Shown: one piece after another, positions 18,824-44,265 of the stretch | Layout: each line of letters starts with the position of its first letter | Numbering within the stretch: the stretch's first letter is position 1 | Assembly (NCBI GenBank): GCA_022729705.1 | Contig: DZAX01000014.1 | Coordinates: forward strand, 1 to 55,357 | Source: Helicobacter cetorum | Lineage (GTDB): Bacteria > Campylobacterota > Campylobacteria > Campylobacterales > UBA6016 | Reading direction: 5' to 3' | Length of the DNA: 55,357 nt | The notes under the pieces: generated by a model | Databases searched by the model: none | What the model was told of the DNA's origin: nothing | What the model saw: only the letters and a program-made list of their open reading frames with translations | Made by a program: the position numbers and the translations under genes

Positions 18824-18833
18824 AATTTTCTGA

Positions 18834-18906
18834 TTAATTCTCACATTTTAGGCAAAGCCCAAAATGAGGTCTTCAGCAGACTGTCCTCGTGGTTTGCCGC
18901 TCTTAG
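18834..18906 (+). repeat. Family A intergenic repeat, copy 1
   Basis: Shares TTAATTCTCACATTTT, GCAAAGCCCAAAATGAGG and TCTTCAGCAGA with copies at 29004 and 40984. CATTTT...AAAATG forms a hairpin around a GCAAAGC loop, and the end of the unit carries a short G/C dyad (weak in this copy). It follows the lipoprotein gene. Confidence 0.75.
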
Positions 18907-19033
18907 AAATTCATTTTAATAACCAAAAAATAATCATTAAGAGCTACTATCAAGCAAGTTGGTAGCTAGCTTGCACACTCCTCCTGCGTAGCGGGTAGCT
19001 TCAGAGACATTTTTCACAAAGGATAATCTGTAT

Positions 19034-28604: not shown

Positions 28605-28994
28605 ATGTTAAAAGAGATTGTCGCCATAGGTATCGGCGGCGCTATAGGCTCGATAGCTAGATATGGCGTCGTTATGCTAAGCACAAAAGTTTTGGGTCAA
28701 AACTATACGCATTACGGCACGCTTGCGGTTAACTGTATCGGTTCGTTTTTTATTACGCTCTTTATGGTTTTATATATTGAGAAGTTTGATTTTGACCCGA
28801 TTGTAAGACTTATCGTCGTTGTCGGCTTTTTGGGCGGCTTTACCACGTTTTCTTCGTTTAGCTACGAAACGGTCGCAATGCTTCACGGAAAGCAGTTTCA
28901 AAACGCACTAATGTACATATTAGCCACAAACGGACTAGGTCTATTTTTTGCAATACTAGGAGCTTTCACGGCAAAAACTTTTATTAATAATTAA
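28605..28994 (+). CDS. crcB: CrcB/Fluc fluoride channel
   Basis: A 129-residue, four-helix protein with GGAIGSIARYG, an early TLAVNCIGSF segment and GGFTTFSSFSYE, the full Fluc signature including the Phe box and Na+-site region. It exports fluoride as a dual-topology dimer. It is translated immediately after the MFS gene with no gap. I see no fluoride riboswitch upstream. Confidence 0.95.
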   Translation: MLKEIVAIGIGGAIGSIARYGVVMLSTKVLGQNYTHYGTLAVNCIGSFFITLFMVLYIEKFDFDPIVRLIVVVGFLGGFTTFSSFSYETVAMLHGKQFQNALMYILATNGLGLFFAILGAFTAKTFINN

Positions 28995-29003
28995 CCACCC
29001 TCA

Positions 29004-29075
29004 TTAATTCTCACATTTTGAGCAAAGCCCAAAATGAGGTCTTCAGCAGACGGCTCTCGCGGCTAGCCGCTCTTA
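29004..29075 (+). repeat. Family A intergenic repeat, copy 2
   Basis: Same module order as 18834-18906 and 40984-41055: TTAATTCTCACATTTT, GCAAAGCCCAAAATGAGG, TCTTCAGCAGA, then GCGGCTAGCCGC, a perfect palindrome in this copy. It follows crcB. Confidence 0.75.
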
Positions 29076-29111
29076 AAATTTCATATTTGTTTAGAGTCAT
29101 CTTACAAACTC

Positions 29112-32062: not shown

Positions 32063-32690
32063 TTCCCCCGCTTCTTTTCGCATAAAATTCACGCTTAAAA
32101 TCTTGAAATTCATCTTTTAGTATCGCCGCTCTTATCTGTTTCATGAGGTTTAGATAGTAGTGCAAGTTGTGAATTGTGGCGAGCCTATAAAAAGTCAGCT
32201 CTTTTGTGCGAAACAGGTGGCACATATAAGCTCTCGTATATCTACGACACACAGGGCAGTCCCACTCTTCGTCTATAGGCTTTTGGTCTAGTATATATCT
32301 AGCCGCTTTGATATTTACTTTGCCAAAACTTGTAAAAAGAGTACCATTTCTAGCGTTTCTAGTCGGCATCACGCAATCAAACATATCCACGCCTCTTTCG
32401 ATATTCTCAACCAAATCCTCAGGCGTTCCGACTCCCATAAGATAACGCGGCTTTTCATGCGGCAAAAAAGGCGTAGTCCACTCAACCGTGTCATACATAG
32501 CCGCACTCTCCTCGCCCACAGATAATCCACCTATCGCAAAGCCGTCAAAGCTTTTGCCCTCTGACTCCAAAGATACAAGCCCCTCGGCTGAGAGCTTACG
32601 AAACGCTTTATCTACGCCGCCCTGCACTATCGCAAAAAGGTTGTTTGTCGCGGCTTTGCCGTTTGCTTGCTACGCCTCATGATGCACGAG
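32063..32690 (-). pseudogene. tgt: 5'-truncated second copy of tgt
   Basis: This 628-base segment aligns without gaps to 37513-38140 of the intact tgt at an offset of exactly 5450. Bases 32071-32636 are identical in both; five mismatches cluster in 32637-32690, where homology ends. It encodes only the C-terminal half, including the zinc-binding CPVC region, and has a TAG in place of the first Gln of the QQANGK segment. The longest internal ORF (32052-32627, 191 residues) lacks the active-site aspartates' N-terminal half and is surely inactive as a transglycosylase. Confidence 0.93.
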
Positions 32691-32712
32691 TTTGATAAAA
32701 CCCTCAAAGCTT

Positions 32713-35442
32713 TTAAACGCCATTTCGGCTATTTTGTCCATAAGAGCTCTCCTTAAATATTTTTATCCCAAACGTCCGAATATCGTCCAGCCAGTCTTCC
32801 GCCTCTTTGCGACTGCAACCGTAGACGTTTATAGCCGTGCGAAGTAGGTTTTCGTATTCGTTTTGGATAGAGGTGGCGAAGATGGCGGGGTCGTCGCTGT
32901 TTATCGTCACTAGCGCACTTGCGGTTCGGATACCGTATTTGTTGAAGCGCTCCCCTTTTTGCAAAAACTTCTCTTTTGGCGGACAAAATCTAAAAATAGG
33001 GTGACGCTCGTAGCTAGACATATCGGAGATAAAGACGTTTGAAGACGGATTTGTCTCAAATATAATCCCTTTTTTGGCGTATTTGTCTATCAGATGGTCT
33101 TGCAATATCTCGTATATCTCTATTGCGGCGTCGTCAAAGTAGTTTTTGTCAAGCTCCACAACCTGTTTTGAGCCGTCTCTATACGCTTTACAGCGATGGT
33201 AAGCCTCGTATATCTCTAAAGCTTTTTTGTTTTTCATCTCGCCAAGCACGGCTTTATCATACTCCCAAAAAAGAGTCGCGCCGCTTTTTTGTTTGCCGTG
33301 AGTTAGCGGGCAGTTCTTGCGATACTCCCACGCCTCGTACATATCGCCCATAGTCGCACCGCCAACACCGGAGTAGAGCTCTCGAAACAGCTTTTCCGCC
33401 TCCTCTTGAAGCCTTAGGATATATCTCGTCAGATATGAGTTTTCGGCTTTTATCTCTTTGAGCACGCCGCATAGCCAGACCACATTGTCAAAGTGTTCGC
33501 TTTTGTATATCAAGATAGTCTGCCTAGCCTCCAGCCACTCTTTGGCGGATACGCCAAGACTTAGCGCATGCCCTATCCTATCGCAATTTCCCATACCAAA
33601 ATACTCTACGCACTCGCTCACATACCGCATACCCGTGACGATGCTATTAAAATCCTCTCCGGCGTGAGCCGTCGCGATAAGCCTCGGGTGATGAGAGGCT
33701 ACGCCGAGGTTTGCTATGGCGTGCGTCATTTTTTTTGGTTGTTTTCGCAAAAAGCGAAAGAAAGGGGCAAAAACCTCCGGCGGCGTGTGCGTCTCCTTGC
33801 CCACCGCGTCTATAGCGGACACATACGCCGATATATCGACCCTTTGCCCCATAAGCTCCCGCTTGTTTTCAAACGCCTTTTTTGGGGTATAGCGAAGAGC
33901 TATATCGTATTCGCTTACGTTTTTGTGTATCCCACTTCTCAAAAAAGCGTCTAGCGCTAAAGCCTCTTTTTTTAGCTTCTTTCGCTTTTTATAAAACGAC
34001 GGCTCGCTTAACTCGTTTAGCGACTTTCTTTTGTCTTCCCGCCGTTTGTTGACGCATAGACCAATAGAGAATCCAAAAACGCCCTTTTTTGGATTCTCTT
34101 CAAACAGATGATAAAAATTTTGCACATTCTCCGCTATCTCGGAGGCGCTTTGCGATACGCCTGTTTTTGCGTGCAGATAGTTTGTTCCGCTATCTTTTAT
34201 GCCCTTGATAGAGTTTTCCCAATCTTGCTCGTCTACCCTGCGGATTTTTGCCTCGCTAAACTCGCTAAAATGCGCCAACCCAAGATTTTGCGACATCATC
34301 ATATAAGAGCGGAGGATATTTGAAACGTGCAAATACAGCCGGATAAACATCTTGATGCGACTATCTTTTGTCTGCAAAAACAGATAAAAACATAGTATAG
34401 ACTCCGCTAGATGCGCCTTGTCAAACTCTTTTTTCTCATAGTATCTTAGCGTCATAGACAGCAGCGACGCTTGCGTCGTCGAAAAAGTCAGATTTGTAAT
34501 CCGTCTCATATCGCTTAGTTTTTGCATGGAGTATCTAAAAGGGGTGTATACGTTGCGATTTATGGAGACTATCTTGCGTAGTTTTTTGCTAGGGCAATCT
34601 TCACATATCTTGCGCAGTTTTTCATCAATACAGTCTTTACGCATCTTTCGTAATTTTTCCTCAGAGCAGTCGCAATACTTCTTTTGTAGTTTATTATTGA
34701 TGCATTCGCAACACTTCTTTCTTAGTTTTTCATCGGCGCATTCATCGCCCGCATCCATAGATGCGCCATAGACGACGTCCACGCAAAGCTTTAGTATATC
34801 CGTTACTTGTCCTAGCGAATAAGAGCCGTTGTTTATGTAGCTAAATTCGTTGATTCGCGGCTGATCTCTTAGATACTCCGTCGTATATTGTTTTTCGTTT
34901 GTCGGAAGATTTGCGATATTTGCGAGGTTGAACGGCGAGTATCCGGCGCCTTTGATGTGCAGGTGGTTGTCGGCGTACTCTTTTGTATTGTCCACCTTTA
35001 GCCCTAGCGGTTTTGAGCGCAGGACAAAAGCCTCTATGTCCGCAAGCTCTATATCGCCCTCATATAGCGTCTTTGCCAGCTTGCAACCGATGATGTGAGA
35101 GGGGGAGAGCTTGGTCAAAAACTTCATATATTCGTTTAGCGTCTCGGTCTTTGGATATATGGCGGAGCCGTCTATGACGAGATACTTATCAAATAGCTCA
35201 TCGACAAACGAAAAATCATACCGCAAATCCCCCGCCCCGCAATCCGCAAACTCCTTGCGCTCCATAGCCATCTCTATCTCGTCTAGCCTGTAACTATTTG
35301 GATAAAAATCCCTTACGGAGTCTTTGAGTGCCTCCCCGCCCGCTTTTTCGCCCCAAGCTATATGCCTTACGAGCGCGTCCATCATCTTGTCGCTTCTTAG
35401 TAGCGATATGTGAGGGATGGCGCTTATTGTGTTTTTTAGCAT
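32713..35442 (-). CDS. RdrB-like adenosine deaminase superfamily protein (RADAR-type)
   Basis: A 909-residue protein with scattered adenosine-deaminase motifs: H160-L-H162 (metal), HAGE 593-596 (catalytic Glu), RIGH 622-625, NPSSN 798-802 and S849-DDP (metal Asp). About 430 residues separate the first two motifs, whereas ordinary adenosine deaminases (about 350 residues) have under 200. This size, insertion and adjacency to a P-loop ATPase match RdrB of the RADAR anti-phage system, which deaminates adenosine/ATP. Five 12-residue Cys repeats occupy 234-291. The start is one base after the ATPase stop (TAA-A-ATG). The assignment is by architecture and motifs, not alignment. Confidence 0.7.
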   Translation of the reverse strand: MLKNTISAIPHISLLRSDKMMDALVRHIAWGEKAGGEALKDSVRDFYPNSYRLDEIEMAMERKEFADCGAGDLRYDFSFVDELFDKYLVIDGSAIYPKTETLNEYMKFLTKLSPSHIIGCKLAKTLYEGDIELADIEAFVLRSKPLGLKVDNTKEYADNHLHIKGAGYSPFNLANIANLPTNEKQYTTEYLRDQPRINEFSYINNGSYSLGQVTDILKLCVDVVYGASMDAGDECADEKLRKKCCECINNKLQKKYCDCSEEKLRKMRKDCIDEKLRKICEDCPSKKLRKIVSINRNVYTPFRYSMQKLSDMRRITNLTFSTTQASLLSMTLRYYEKKEFDKAHLAESILCFYLFLQTKDSRIKMFIRLYLHVSNILRSYMMMSQNLGLAHFSEFSEAKIRRVDEQDWENSIKGIKDSGTNYLHAKTGVSQSASEIAENVQNFYHLFEENPKKGVFGFSIGLCVNKRREDKRKSLNELSEPSFYKKRKKLKKEALALDAFLRSGIHKNVSEYDIALRYTPKKAFENKRELMGQRVDISAYVSAIDAVGKETHTPPEVFAPFFRFLRKQPKKMTHAIANLGVASHHPRLIATAHAGEDFNSIVTGMRYVSECVEYFGMGNCDRIGHALSLGVSAKEWLEARQTILIYKSEHFDNVVWLCGVLKEIKAENSYLTRYILRLQEEAEKLFRELYSGVGGATMGDMYEAWEYRKNCPLTHGKQKSGATLFWEYDKAVLGEMKNKKALEIYEAYHRCKAYRDGSKQVVELDKNYFDDAAIEIYEILQDHLIDKYAKKGIIFETNPSSNVFISDMSSYERHPIFRFCPPKEKFLQKGERFNKYGIRTASALVTINSDDPAIFATSIQNEYENLLRTAINVYGCSRKEAEDWLDDIRTFGIKIFKESSYGQNSRNGV
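34564..34743 (-). repeat. Five 36-bp coding repeats (12-residue Cys/Leu/Lys units) in the RdrB-like gene
   Basis: Residues 234-293 read as five units of [DE]-C-x3-K-L-x-K-x3, with Cys at 235, 247, 259, 271 and 283, an exact period of 12. Further Cys lie at 244, 245, 257 and 280. At DNA level the units have diverged but are recognisable. They fall inside the large insertion of the deaminase fold. A metal-binding or oligomerisation role is a guess. Confidence 0.85.
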
Positions 35443-35443
35443 T

Positions 35444-37256
35444 TTATAGGTTATTGAAGTGTTGTTTGAAAACTTCTAACGCTTTTTTGACAAGCTCTTT
35501 TTTTCCCTTTTTAAGAGTTTCTGCCCAACCGTCAAACACATTGAAGTCATCCCACATAACTCTTACATCCCCAAAATCCTTCTTCCACCGTCCAAACTCC
35601 TCTTTAAAACTAGCTTCGTCTTTGAGGTTTTGCAATATCTCAAGCATTCTGAACAACTTTAGAGGTATTTTATCTTCAATGTTTTTATTGAACCCATCTA
35701 CTGTTTCCAAAGACATATTGTTCTTATACGTCAGTTCTACTCTTAATAAATTAAGGTATGCCCTATAAAATTTTGGACTTATCTCTATAGCTTCTCGATA
35801 AGCCTCTATCGCTTTGTCGTACTCTTTTTTAATGGCATATATATTTCCCAGGCTATAGTACGCCCAATCATGTTTCGAATTTATCTTTACAGTTTTTTGA
35901 TAAGCCTCTATCGCTTTGTCGTACTCTTTTCTAGCGAAATATATAACTCCTATATTATTGTATGCTGAATCTTGATTTGGTTCTATCTCTATAGCTTTTT
36001 GATAAAGACCCTATAGCTTCGTCGTAGCGTCCCTCTGCGCCTAGCTGTAGACCCTTTTCATAGTAGAATTCGACAAGGTAAAATCCTAAAGAGTATATTC
36101 TGTCTAGTTTAGACAATAGATCGAGTAGAGTTTTTATGGTCTCCGGGTTTGGTTGAGCATGATATTTGCCCACTTCCTTTATGGTCTCTTTGGCAAAAGA
36201 GAGGAATTTTCTTAGGTTAAACTCTGTAAACATTTTCTTAAAAAACCTATCATGAATGACTTTGCTAAGCGTTTCTCTGTAGTCGCCCAGCGACATAGAG
36301 AAATCCCTTGTCTCGAGCGTTATTTCCATACTACTTAGCTCTTTAAAGCTCTTTAGCTTCGCCCTCGCTTTATACTCAAATAGCTTACCGAGATAATCAT
36401 CCGCCAGCTTTACCACAAACTCTTTTTTCCCATCTCTGCATATCCTCTCCGCCCCCTCTTCCATATATCCGTCTAGCTCTTTTTGCTTTAGCGATAGATT
36501 GTCGGCAAACTCCTTGTGGATTATCCTCTCATACAGGCATATATCGCCCGTGACTACCGATATGACGTATGGGGAGGCTAGGTATTTTCTCACGGTCTCT
36601 AGTACCTCGTACCCTTTTTCAAACGCCATATCCACGTCGTCTATCAGCAGTACCAGCTGTTTATTGCCAAAGGTCTTTGAGACGAGTCCGAAAAACTCGT
36701 GGATATATTGCTCCAGCCGCAATCCCGACTGGTCGCTTGAGATTATCTGAAAGGCGTTTTTGCGTTCGCCGTCGAAGCCGTCTATAGCCTCCGCCACTTG
36801 AGCTAGTTTTTCATAAAACTTTCTATTATCCTCATCGCTTAGCTTCTCGTCGCACTTTCTTTTCTCTAGCTCGTTTAGTATCTTTGCTAGGATTACGGTT
36901 AGGAAGTTTTCGTTTTTGTGAAGGAGCGTAGGGTCTATCGGGGCGAAAAAGTAGAAGTTATCGGCAAAGGGGCACTTATTTAGCTCCTCTTTTACGTTGC
37001 ATTTGAGGTATTTTGAGATATTGAGCAAAAAATAGGTTTTTCCCGAGCCTCTGCCGCCGACTATTAGCGCCGTGTTTCTAGTTCTGCATTCGCTTATATC
37101 TTGCGGCACCTCTGGTATCTTGCCGTTATACTCTTTGAAAAGCTCTTTTATCTTCTCGTAAGCCTCCTCTTGAAGCCTCCATCTTAGCTCGTCCGTCTCT
37201 TTTGTGTTTGTGTCTATGTTGTCAAGGTTTATTATGATGCTTTCTTTGTCGGACAT
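35444..37256 (-). CDS. RdrA-like P-loop ATPase with C-terminal TPRs (one frameshift)
   Basis: As written the frame runs 433 codons (37256-35955) and ends by frameshift; removing one base from the CCC run at 36009-36011 joins it to an open frame ending at 35444, giving 603 residues. Walker A is GGRGSGKT (67-74), Walker B is LVLLIDDVD (201-209), followed by a sensor-like VVTGD. After the ATPase part come three TPR units (about 410-510; YDEAI, YDKAIEAY, YDKAIEAY) that straddle the shift, then a helical tail. It is the first gene of a pair with the deaminase-like gene. KAP/AAA+ ATPase plus deaminase is the RADAR layout; known RdrA proteins are longer as I recall, so this may be a short variant. 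Confidence 0.68.
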
Positions 37257-37415
37257 ACCATCTCCTCTATATTTGCTTGATATATATTACTCATTTTTTA
37301 CAAAAAATATTATAGACGGCGCCGACGCATGAAAGGCGTCTAAAAAATATTTCGCTCTAATTTTGATAGTTACAGCAACGGAGTGCAATACGGCAAATAT
37401 ATAAGAGGTTTTGGT

Positions 37416-37505
37416 ATGAAAACAAGCATAAGTATGCGACTAGACGGCGATATAATTGCGTAGACAAACTAAAAAAGATTTACTTTCTTAAAATATACAA
37501 TTTTT
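37416..37505 (+). pseudogene. Remnant of a ribbon-helix-helix antitoxin gene
   Basis: MKTSISMRLDGDIIA followed by a stop; in another frame just downstream DKLKKI continues as expected for RelB/CopG-type antitoxins (MKTSISMRLDxDIIAxxDKL). The reading then decays to a stop at 37505. It lies in the gap between the ATPase and the intact tgt, on the opposite strand. No toxin gene is visible. Confidence 0.45.
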
Positions 37506-37507
37506 AG

Positions 37508-38650
37508 TTAGCTTTCCCCACTTCTTTTCGCATAAAATTCACGCTTAAAATCTTGAAATTCATCTTTTAGTATCGCCGCTCTTATCTGTTTCATGAGGTT
37601 TAGATAGTAGTGCAAGTTGTGAATTGTGGCGAGCCTATAAAAAGTCAGCTCTTTTGTGCGAAACAGGTGGCACATATAAGCTCTCGTATATCTACGACAC
37701 ACAGGGCAGTCCCACTCTTCGTCTATAGGCTTTTGGTCTAGTATATATCTAGCCGCTTTGATATTTACTTTGCCAAAACTTGTAAAAAGAGTACCATTTC
37801 TAGCGTTTCTAGTCGGCATCACGCAATCAAACATATCCACGCCTCTTTCGATATTCTCAACCAAATCCTCAGGCGTTCCGACTCCCATAAGATAACGCGG
37901 CTTTTCATGCGGCAAAAAAGGCGTAGTCCACTCAACCGTGTCATACATAGCCGCACTCTCCTCGCCCACAGATAATCCACCTATCGCAAAGCCGTCAAAG
38001 CTTTTGCCCTCTGACTCCAAAGATACAAGCCCCTCGGCTGAGAGCTTACGAAACGCTTTATCTACGCCGCCCTGCACTATCGCAAAGAGATTGTTTGTCG
38101 CGGCTTTGCCGTTTGCTTGCTGCGCCTTATGATACACGAGGCTTCTTTTTGCCCATTCGGTTGTGCGCTCTACTGATTTTTTGATTCGCTCTTGCTCTGC
38201 CGGAAGAGCGATGAGGTCGTCTAGCACCATCATAATGTCGCTGTTTAGCTCGTATTGTATATCAAGCACTTTTTCAGCTGTGAAGTAGTGGCTGCTTCCG
38301 TCTATATGGCTTTTAAATTTTATACCGTCATCAGAGGCTTTTGATATATCGGAGAGGCTAAACGCCTGAAAACCGCCGCTATCGGTCAAAAATGCACCTT
38401 GGTAGGTCGTAAAGCCGTGAAGTCCGCCCATCTTATCCACGACGGGGCTTCCGGGGCGCAAATATGTGTGGTAGGTGTTTGCGAGTATGATTTTTGCGCC
38501 AAGCTCCTCTATGTCCGCCATATCGAGAGCTTTGACGCTTGCCACTGTGCCGACAGGCATAAATACGGGGGTTTGTATCTCGCCTCTTGTCGTTTTGATA
38601 GAGCAGGCTCTAGCCCGCCCGTCTACTTTTTCTACTGTAAATTCAAACAT
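37508..38650 (-). CDS. tgt: tRNA-guanine transglycosylase (intact copy)
   Basis: A 380-residue TIM-barrel enzyme with [12 protein letters not shown] (active-site Asp), [14 protein letters not shown] (nucleophile region) and the zinc site [16 protein letters not shown] plus HNLHYY. It exchanges guanine 34 for preQ1 in tRNAs with GUN anticodons. Its 3' 628 bases recur at 32063-32690, bounding the RADAR-like operon. The C-terminus here (SGES) differs from the truncated copy (SGGNSF), so divergence starts a few bases before the stop. Confidence 0.97.
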
Positions 38651-40966: not shown

Positions 40967-40983
40967 TTTATATATCCTTTTGA

Positions 40984-41055
40984 TTAATTCTCACATTTTG
41001 CGCAAAGCCCAAAATGAGGTCTTCGGCAGACAGCTCTCGCAGCTTGCCGCTCTTA
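40984..41055 (+). repeat. Family A intergenic repeat, copy 3
   Basis: TTAATTCTCACATTTT, GCAAAGCCCAAAATGAGG, TCTTCGGCAGA and a GC-rich dyad, as in copies 1 and 2. Located in the gap between the lsrK stop and the cupin start. Confidence 0.75.
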
Positions 41056-41075
41056 TAAAAATAGTTTTGCTATTT

Positions 41076-42723: not shown

Positions 42724-44265
42724 TTAATCAGCCGCCCTCTCCCACTCCACCGCACTAACCCCTCTGCTTACCGAATCAAACTCCACACCCACAAGCCAAA
42801 TCTCTTTACCCTCGTTTTGGTATTTTTTGGCGTACTCTTTGTCTTTTATCTGCTTTAGAGCCTTACCCTCTCCGTCTACTTTAAACTCTAAGATATAAAT
42901 AAAGTTTTGAAGTTTTAGGGTTAAGTCTATTCTGCCGCTACTTGTTGTGTCTTCCGCTGTCATATCTATACCAAGAGAAGCAAGGTAAGCATAAAGTACA
43001 GAAGCGTAGTAGCCCTCATATTTTTCTATCTTGTTTTTTGTGTAGTTGTTGTAGGGAATAGAGGCGAATAGGGAGATTATAGTAGTTTTGAAGGTTTCTA
43101 GGTCGGCGACTAGGAGGGCTTTTAGTAGTTTTGGTTTTGTCCTTACACTCTCTTGCCCATCGCCTGTCATCGCTTTAAAAAAGCTGTTGTTTAGGCTTGA
43201 TTTTACTTCTAGATTTGGGATTTTGAGGTGGTAGCTTATGAAATTTCCAACTCTCTCTTGTTTGTCTATTGTGAGATAGCCTGATTGAAAAAGTAATGAC
43301 TCTATTTTTATATTCTCTATCTCAAAGCTCTCCATTAGCTCGTTATCCGCAACCAAACTCTCAATGGACGGCAGATAATAACCGCTCTCCTCAACAAGCT
43401 TAATCAAAAAAGTAGGAGTCCCCGTCTCAAACCAATAAGCTCTAAACTCCTTATCGGGAGAGTCTAAAAACAGTAGAATATCAAAAGGATTATATACACT
43501 TATCCCAAGCCAAGAGTAACCGTTGTACCATCTTTTTACCTCTTCTATGTCTACGTCCTCCAAATACTCTTCAAAGCTCTCTTCTACATCTTTTTGAGTG
43601 TATCCGCATATTGTAGAGTAGCGTTTGTCTAGGCTTATGTCTTTTAGGTTGTTTAGTCCTGAGAAGATAGAGGTTTTGGCAAATTTACTAACTCCTGTTA
43701 GAAAAGCAAACTTTAGGTCTTCATCCGCTCCTTTTATGATTGTATAAAATCCTTTTAGGATTTCTCTGAACTCTTTGGCTAATGGGAGGTTTTCTATGTT
43801 GTCTAATATTGGTTTGTCGTATTCGTCTACTAAGACTACTACTTGTGAGTTTGTTTTTTCTTTTAGGGCGGTTATTAGTTCTTTGAAGGCTTCGTAGTAC
43901 TCTTCTCTTTCAAGTTCTATAGCGTAAGACTTAGCAACGTCTTTTAGTCTATGCAAGATAAAAGATTTTAGTTTTTCAGGGGTTTCGGCTTTTTGATTTC
44001 CAAAGTCTATTTTTATTACAGGGTAGCTTTTGCTCCAGTCGTATTTGTCGTAGATATAAAGCCCCTTGAAGAGTTCTTGTTTGCCCTCAAAGATTGATGA
44101 TAGGGTGTCAAGAAATAGGGATTTGCCGAAGCGTCTTGGGCGGGAGAGGAAGTAATACTTGCTGTTTTCTATTAACTCTAAAGCCTCTTTTGTTTTGTCT
44201 ATGTAGATGTAGTTGTCTTCTCTTATGTTTGATAGGGATTGTATGCCTATTGGGAGTTTTTTCAT
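42724..44265 (-). CDS. AAA-ATPase-like / PD-(D/E)XK nuclease family protein
   Basis: A 513-residue protein: N-terminal AAA-like domain with SRPRRFGKSLFLDTL (Walker A) and VVLVDEYDKPILD (Walker B-like), a middle helical region, and a C-terminal nuclease-fold segment (GRIDLTLKLQNFIYILEFKVDG with D and ExK). This is the AAA-ATPase_like plus DUF1703 family, often multicopy and mobile in bacteria; its function is unproven. It is monocistronic and follows an IS-end-like repeat near ispG. Confidence 0.88.
   Translation of the reverse strand: MKKLPIGIQSLSNIREDNYIYIDKTKEALELIENSKYYFLSRPRRFGKSLFLDTLSSIFEGKQELFKGLYIYDKYDWSKSYPVIKIDFGNQKAETPEKLKSFILHRLKDVAKSYAIELEREEYYEAFKELITALKEKTNSQVVVLVDEYDKPILDNIENLPLAKEFREILKGFYTIIKGADEDLKFAFLTGVSKFAKTSIFSGLNNLKDISLDKRYSTICGYTQKDVEESFEEYLEDVDIEEVKRWYNGYSWLGISVYNPFDILLFLDSPDKEFRAYWFETGTPTFLIKLVEESGYYLPSIESLVADNELMESFEIENIKIESLLFQSGYLTIDKQERVGNFISYHLKIPNLEVKSSLNNSFFKAMTGDGQESVRTKPKLLKALLVADLETFKTTIISLFASIPYNNYTKNKIEKYEGYYASVLYAYLASLGIDMTAEDTTSSGRIDLTLKLQNFIYILEFKVDGEGKALKQIKDKEYAKKYQNEGKEIWLVGVEFDSVSRGVSAVEWERAAD

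What the first reader, a model, noticed from the sequence alone, without database searches (positions are those of the whole stretch)
32713..37256. RADAR-like anti-phage operon in a Campylobacterota genome
A P-loop ATPase and a 909-residue adenosine-deaminase-fold protein form a tight two-gene operon (one base between stop and start). The deaminase keeps HxH, HAGE, RIGH and SDDP but has about 430 residues between HxH and HAGE, as in RdrB. The ATPase ends in TPR repeats and is shorter than the RdrA proteins I recall, so this may be a compact or divergent RADAR branch.
Basis: partly seen in the sequence, partly recalled or inferred. Interest (0 to 1): 0.82.

Follow-up and report, generated by a model that had tools for sequence, protein, structure and literature searches.

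The report
Frame-broken RADAR defence operon beside tgt
This bacterium carries a distant version of RADAR, a known two-protein anti-phage system, in which the sensor end of one protein is a repeat-type (TPR) arm; here that gene is frame-broken, a third gene is cut short, and the whole block sits between two copies of part of a housekeeping gene.

Summary
The operon is real and is RADAR by descent. The deaminase (32713-35442, minus) matches RdrB (PADLOC 3e-80) with every zinc and catalytic residue kept; the ATPase matches RdrA (PADLOC 1e-36; NCBIfam 2e-60). (1) rdrA is not one open frame: it stops at 35955 after 433 aa, and the TPR part continues one frame over to 35444; the 'one-base gap' belongs to that off-frame piece. 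(2) A third ORF overlapping the end of rdrB is cut after about 19 codons; relatives have a complete small membrane-protein gene there or upstream. (3) The block is flanked by a 625-bp direct repeat of the 3' part of tgt (619/625 identical, differences only near the edges): insertion with a long target duplication. The TPR-type compact RdrA is a genuine variant: an intact 641-aa relative occurs in Nitratifractor, and window, Nitratifractor and Sulfurimonas RdrB form one clade (100/100), whereas 20 other RdrA proteins read here are 756-1027 aa and none of the 17 scanned has TPRs. Best reading: a horizontally acquired, recently damaged RADAR of a TPR-RdrA branch, probably impaired in this strain. 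New variant of a known kind.

The parts
35955..37256 (-). rdrA, 5' part: 433-aa ORF with the AAA+ ATPase core (Walker A, Walker B, sensor 1) and the start of the TPR region; premature stop
35444..36010 (-). rdrA, 3' part in another frame: 188 stop-free codons with TPR repeats, stop one base before the rdrB ATG; no ATG/GTG/TTG start before 35716
35780..36026 (-). 102-bp (34-codon) tandem array = TPR units; the frame break lies at its upstream edge (about 36000-36010)
32713..35442 (-). rdrB: 909-aa adenosine-deaminase-fold protein, intact, catalytic residues kept
34608..34743 (-). 36-bp tandem repeat inside rdrB, encoding a Cys-rich insertion of (D)EKLRKxCxxC units at about residues 233-290, absent from relatives
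32670..32741 (-). truncated third ORF (MDKIAEMAFKSFEGFIKLV then repeat-derived HHEA and stop), overlapping the rdrB end; candidate remnant of the small membrane-protein gene ('rdrC'-like)
32066..32690 (-). downstream copy of the 625-bp direct repeat = 3' part of tgt without its start
37516..38140 (-). upstream copy of the direct repeat, inside the intact tgt gene
37508..38650 (-). tgt (tRNA-guanine transglycosylase), intact 380-aa copy upstream of the RADAR block
37257..37507 (-). leader between tgt and rdrA; AGGAG ribosome-binding site before the rdrA ATG; no RNA structure beyond chance

Best explanation
This is a RADAR locus (rdrA-rdrB, with a remnant of a third membrane-protein gene) of a branch in which RdrA has the usual AAA+ motor but a short C-terminal TPR arm instead of the long helical lobe. 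It was acquired next to tgt by a recombination event that duplicated 625 bp of tgt, and it has since been damaged. Inferred intact mechanism, from the E. coli system (PMC9994260): an RdrA ATPase ring docks on an RdrB deaminase shell, phage infection is sensed through the variable C-terminal part (here the TPR arm), and RdrB converts ATP/dATP to ITP/dITP, which blocks phage replication. In this genome the rdrA frame breaks at the first TPR unit. The cell would make an ATPase domain without its sensor arm, and rdrB, which has no visible ribosome-binding site of its own and starts one base after the off-frame stop, loses translational coupling. The system is therefore most likely weak or inactive here. 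Recombination between the repeats would remove the block and leave one intact tgt. Shown: homology, motifs, frame break, truncation, repeat, clade. Inferred: activity, sensing role of the TPR arm, loss of coupling, route of acquisition.
For: Profiles: RdrB 2.6e-80 and RdrA 1.2e-36 in PADLOC; NCBIfam RdrB 420.6 bits, RdrA 205.3 bits. Solved-structure sequences: RdrB 8fnw 1.9e-19, RdrA 8hr7 7.2e-17. Foldseek of the modelled proteins finds only RdrB chains (2.7e-14) and RdrA chains (5e-12) with E below 0.001. Catalytic residues are kept across 15 RdrB. An intact compact relative in Nitratifractor (RdrA 641 aa with TPRs, RdrB 40% identical) aligns with the read-through window RdrA over its whole length (30.5%, 8e-77). 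RdrB clade window + Nitratifractor + Sulfurimonas 100/100. Frame break. Third gene: Sulfurimonas L022 has a complete membrane-protein gene overlapping its rdrB end, and homologues lie by other RADAR loci. Direct repeat: 625 bp, 619 identical, 566-bp perfect core. The two genus mates have tgt but neither the insert nor RdrB.
Against: NCBI's curated naming cut-offs are not reached (420.6 of 800; 205.3 of 600), although no sampled Campylobacterota RdrB reaches its cut-off either (0 of 397). Both structure models are of modest confidence (pTM 0.47 and 0.40). The frame break cannot be checked against reads or another strain. The truncated third ORF is only 19 residues long before the repeat, and its resemblance to the membrane proteins is weak (p 0.02-0.04 against three of seven, 0.11-0.8 against the other four). 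The genus mates have different genes around tgt, so the empty site is not strictly orthologous.
Confidence: 0.72

Rival explanations
1. The system is intact and functional: the rdrA frame break is a sequencing or assembly error in a 75-contig draft, and the truncated third ORF is dispensable.
For: Everything downstream of the break is unspoiled: 188 stop-free codons with strong TPR scores (TPR_1 8e-26 in the read-through protein) and a complete rdrB with all active-site residues. Standalone rdrAB systems without a third gene exist (PMC7699616).
Against: The break is not in a long homopolymer, where sequencing errors concentrate. The third gene is also cut, and another RADAR locus in the phylum shows damage too (in-frame TAA in rdrB of G408/L027).
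Confidence: 0.22
2. rdrA is expressed whole by programmed frameshifting, or as two separate proteins (AAA+ core and TPR piece).
For: The two frames overlap at the break and the TPR piece stays open.
Against: The overlap holds no recognisable +1 slippery site by eye, the TPR piece has no ATG/GTG/TTG start until 35716, well inside it, and the closest relative encodes RdrA in one frame.
Confidence: 0.04
3. A sub-question within the best explanation: the repeat arose by transfer from a donor that already carried the tgt duplication (double crossover inside the two tgt copies), rather than by one-sided illegitimate insertion in this lineage.
For: Differences between the copies lie only at the edges: five in the first 54 bp next to the truncated ORF, one 5 bp from the other end, with 566 bp identical between them (chance of 5 of 6 in the first 56: 3e-5, post hoc). 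That is what a recipient-derived core with donor-derived edges would look like.
Against: Gene conversion between two old copies, which fades next to non-homologous sequence, gives the same pattern. No donor was found.
Confidence: 0.45
4. The pair is an unrelated metabolic amidohydrolase plus a KAP-type P-loop ATPase.
For: Pfam gives only A_deaminase for the deaminase, and KAP_NTPase heads the list for the ATPase.
Against: Specific RdrA/RdrB hits, tandem order, the large HxH-HAGE insertion and RdrB-only fold matches.
Confidence: 0.01

Closest known systems
RADAR (RdrA-RdrB) of E. coli / Citrobacter rodentium / Streptococcus suis
   Same: Gene order rdrA-rdrB; AAA+ motifs; deaminase zinc histidines, catalytic glutamate and large insertion; C-terminal deaminase segment aligns with 8fnw, ATPase domain with 8hr7
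   Different: RdrA 602 residues when read through against 947 in the solved chains; TPR arm instead of the helical lobe; rdrA frame broken; NCBIfam naming cut-offs not met
Nitratifractor sp. RADAR locus (L015/L028, WFNP01000028.1)
   Same: RdrB 40% identical; compact RdrA (641 aa) with TPRs; membrane-protein gene nearby
   Different: RdrA in one frame; no tgt repeat; a P-loop/FGE-domain gene lies between the membrane gene and rdrA
Sulfurimonas sp. locus (L022, JALSKR010000014.1)
   Same: RdrB 40% identical, same clade; third gene overlaps the rdrB end as in the window
   Different: Third gene complete (205 aa); rdrA lies off the contig and was not found in that genome
Csx27- and SLATT-associated RADAR subtypes (rdrABC, rdrABCD; PMC7699616)
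   Same: A small membrane protein accompanies rdrA-rdrB
   Different: The Campylobacterota membrane family shows no match to a SLATT protein nor a significant match in Pfam, NCBIfam or PADLOC; Csx27 was not available for comparison
Insertion with long target duplication, described for restriction-modification genes of Helicobacter pylori (Nobusato 2000, cited in PMC4978471)
   Same: A defence gene block flanked by a long direct repeat of a host gene, no integrase or transposase identified beside it
   Different: RADAR instead of restriction-modification; edge-only divergence of the repeat

Membership tests
RADAR | RdrA AAA+ ATPase core: Walker A, Walker B, sensor 1 | tested here: met
   GGRGSGKT 67, LLIDDVDM 203, VTGD 235, aligned with 14 relatives; PADLOC RdrA 1.2e-36
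RADAR | RdrB deaminase: two histidines of HxH, histidines of HAGE and RxGH, catalytic glutamate, DD motif, large insertion | tested here: met
   H160, H162, H593, E596, H625, D850-D851; 433 residues between HxH and HAGE; PADLOC RdrB 2.6e-80
RADAR | rdrA and rdrB in tandem | tested here: met
   Same strand and order; also in the relatives with both genes on the contig
RADAR | intact rdrA reading frame | tested here: not met
   Stop at 35955; TPR part in another frame. This concerns the allele in this strain, not descent, so it is filed as a damaged RADAR locus by descent and not as a working RADAR system
RADAR | long C-terminal helical lobe of RdrA | tested here: not met
   TPR arm instead, total 602 aa read through; two members of this kind known here. 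The lobe is reported as highly variable in sequence (PMC9994260), so it may not be defining
NCBIfam RdrA / RdrB equivalogs | score above the curated cut-off | tested here: not met
   205.3 of 600 and 420.6 of 800 bits; 0 of 397 Campylobacterota reach the RdrB cut-off
RADAR | RdrA ring on RdrB shell; ATP-to-ITP deamination; phage protection | not testable with these tools
   Needs protein and phage experiments
Csx27- or SLATT-associated RADAR subtype | Csx27 or SLATT membrane-protein gene in the operon | tested here: inconclusive
   Truncated ORF after rdrB resembles the start of a membrane family of relatives; that family does not match SLATT; Csx27 not available
Insertion with long target duplication | insert flanked by a long direct repeat made from the target | tested here: met
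   625 bp of tgt on both sides, 619 identical; single tgt without insert in two genus mates
Insertion with long target duplication | orthologous empty site in a close strain | tested here: inconclusive
   Genus mates lack the insert but have other genes around tgt

The most novel reading that the evidence does not exclude
RADAR has a branch in which the RdrA phage-sensing lobe was exchanged for a TPR arm, so the ATPase-deaminase machine is modular with a replaceable sensor; it moves between Campylobacterota as an excisable cassette made by long target duplication, usually with a small membrane protein as third component.
Probability: 0.35. Interest if true: 0.6.

Novelty: new variant of a known kind. 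Interest (0 to 1): 0.42.

Why it matters
What RADAR senses is unknown, and the RdrA C-terminal lobe has been proposed as the sensor although it resembles nothing known (PMC9994260). A natural branch in which that lobe is a short TPR arm, a recognisable protein-binding module, offers a direct way to test that idea by domain swaps and pull-downs. The tgt duplication shows a defence system other than restriction-modification carried by a long-target-duplication cassette, which can also leave cleanly.

Tried and rejected
Single-protein scans of genome contigs and viral contigs with the window RdrB found no relatives, nor did an alignment scan of viral contigs or tblastn on phages, so there is no sign of phage carriage. 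The Sulfurimonas genome gave no RdrA. A class-level search returned the same hits as the phylum search. No PADLOC system was found in the ten neighbouring genes tested, so there is no obvious defence island. The rdrA leader fold is not better than shuffles. SLATT identity of the membrane protein was tested and rejected. Promoter scan not used: matches are unspecific. A four-letter-codon read-through by the translate tool failed because the word occurs twice; the read-through was built with X at the junction instead. GC and codon usage of the insert do not stand out clearly.
Full report
Check of the observation. The window has a 909-aa minus-strand ORF at 32713-35442 and a 433-aa ORF at 35955-37256. 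The first is a RADAR deaminase: PADLOC RdrB 2.6e-80, NCBIfam RdrB 420.6 bits, best solved relatives 8fnw/8fnv. The second is a RADAR ATPase: PADLOC RdrA 1.2e-36, NCBIfam RdrA 205.3 bits, best solved relatives 8hr7/8fnt. Catalytic motifs are complete in both. The distance from HxH to HAGE is 433 residues, against 345-417 in the relatives measured; the surplus is largely a Cys-rich insertion made of a 36-bp tandem repeat at 34608-34743.

The ATPase is not one frame. From 37256 the frame closes at 35955. The TPR part is read in another frame, stop-free for 188 codons, and ends at 35444, one base before the rdrB ATG. The break lies at the upstream edge of a 102-bp (34-codon) tandem array, that is, in the first TPR unit. 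With an X at the junction the protein is 602 aa, with TPR_1 at 8e-26. There is no long homopolymer at the break, and the TPR piece has no usual start codon before 35716. The rdrB start has no visible ribosome-binding site, whereas rdrA has AGGAG, so rdrB probably depended on translation through the end of rdrA; this step is inferred.

Is the compact TPR form real? Yes. Surveys of the phylum and order (8 of 397 genomes; 14 of 399) and a genome-contig scan gave further RADAR loci. The closest with both genes is in Nitratifractor (L015/L028): RdrA 641 aa in one frame with TPRs, aligning with the window read-through over its whole length (30.5%, 8e-77), and RdrB 40% identical. The 20 other RdrA proteins read here, from Campylobacterota, a Magnetococcales bacterium and seven plasmids, are 756-1027 aa, and no Pfam TPR was reported for the 17 that were scanned. 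In a maximum-likelihood tree, window, Nitratifractor and Sulfurimonas RdrB form a clade with 100/100 support; the Sulfurimonas RdrA lies off its short contig and could not be read. The branch is thus supported by two RdrA proteins, a small sample. Structure models were of modest confidence (pTM 0.47 and 0.40), yet the only Foldseek matches below 0.001 were RdrB chains for the deaminase and RdrA chains for the Nitratifractor ATPase.

Third gene. An ORF starts inside the rdrB end and reads MDKIAEMAFKSFEGFIKLV before it runs into the tgt repeat and a stop. In Sulfurimonas L022 and in L059 a complete small membrane-protein gene overlaps the rdrB end; homologues lie upstream of rdrA in L013/L024, L025, L027/L058 and L015, and beside L016. 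Position and a weak resemblance (p 0.02-0.04 for three of seven) make the window ORF a likely remnant. The family has no significant match in Pfam, NCBIfam or PADLOC and does not match the SLATT protein that follows rdrB in Aureibacter. Reviews report Csx27- and SLATT-associated RADAR (PMC7699616, PMC11676413); whether this family is Csx27 could not be tested.

Flanks. The block lies between an intact tgt (37508-38650) and a second copy of the 3' part of tgt. The repeat is 625 bp, 619 identical: 32066-32690 and 37516-38140. It begins at the hexamer CTCGTG, shared by the truncated ORF and tgt. Five of six differences lie within the first 54 bp beside the truncated ORF, one lies 5 bp from the other end, and 566 bp between are identical. 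The two genus mates have one tgt each, no insert and no RdrB, though with different neighbouring genes. No integrase or transposase was identified among the neighbours tested. This fits insertion with long target duplication, known for restriction-modification genes in Helicobacter (Nobusato 2000, cited in PMC4978471), possibly through homology-facilitated illegitimate recombination (PMC3240628) or transfer from a donor already carrying the duplication. Recombination between the repeats would excise the block and leave tgt intact.

How it most likely works. E. coli RADAR joins a heptameric RdrA ring to a dodecameric RdrB shell and makes ITP/dITP during infection; the RdrA C-terminal lobe has been suggested as the sensor (PMC9994260). 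By homology the intact ancestor of the window system did the same with a TPR arm as the sensing part. In this strain the ATPase would lack that arm and RdrB would be poorly made, so the system is probably impaired; an assembly error remains possible (about 0.2).

Verdict. RADAR by descent, of a TPR-RdrA variant branch, in a damaged copy carried by a tgt duplication. New variant of a known kind. The variation of RdrA outside its ATPase domain and the rarity of RADAR (under 1% of genomes) were known (PMC9994260); no paper in the library combined RdrA, TPR and antiphage.

Noticed in passing
window 28985-29110, 40983-41058, 18830-18917: An interspersed repeat of about 85-126 bp with at least 49 matches in the genome, some in tandem at about 96-bp spacing (e.g. 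G000:C35:32731-33198), and 13 and 3 matches in the two genus mates; it folds better than shuffles as single-stranded DNA (z -2.7). REP-like, unexplained.
   Followed up: partly
L015:1891-4011 (Nitratifractor): A 706-aa protein with an apparent P-loop N-terminal part and an FGE-sulfatase (formylglycine-generating enzyme) domain sits between the membrane-protein gene and rdrA; possibly another defence gene.
   Followed up: no
L027:6001-8703 / L058:6827-9529: Another Campylobacterota RADAR with rdrB split into 416 + 467 aa by an in-frame TAA, so RADAR decay is not unique to the window.
   Followed up: partly
L012/L023 and L025: Arcobacter caeni and an Aliarcobacter MAG carry RADAR at the same chromosomal site, without and with the membrane-protein gene, suggesting gain or loss of the third gene in place.
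   Followed up: no
L078:7043-8644 (Rhizobium leguminosarum pRLN3): An adenylosuccinate synthetase gene lies about 0.9 kb downstream of rdrB, a purine enzyme beside an ATP deaminase.
   Followed up: no
window 34066-34099: A near-perfect palindrome inside rdrB (34 bp, 88%), no other copy seen in the genome.
   Followed up: no
window 42724-44265: Predicted AAA-ATPase with a C-terminal PD-(D/E)XK nuclease domain (PF09820 + PF08011), about 5 kb beyond the RADAR block.
   Followed up: no
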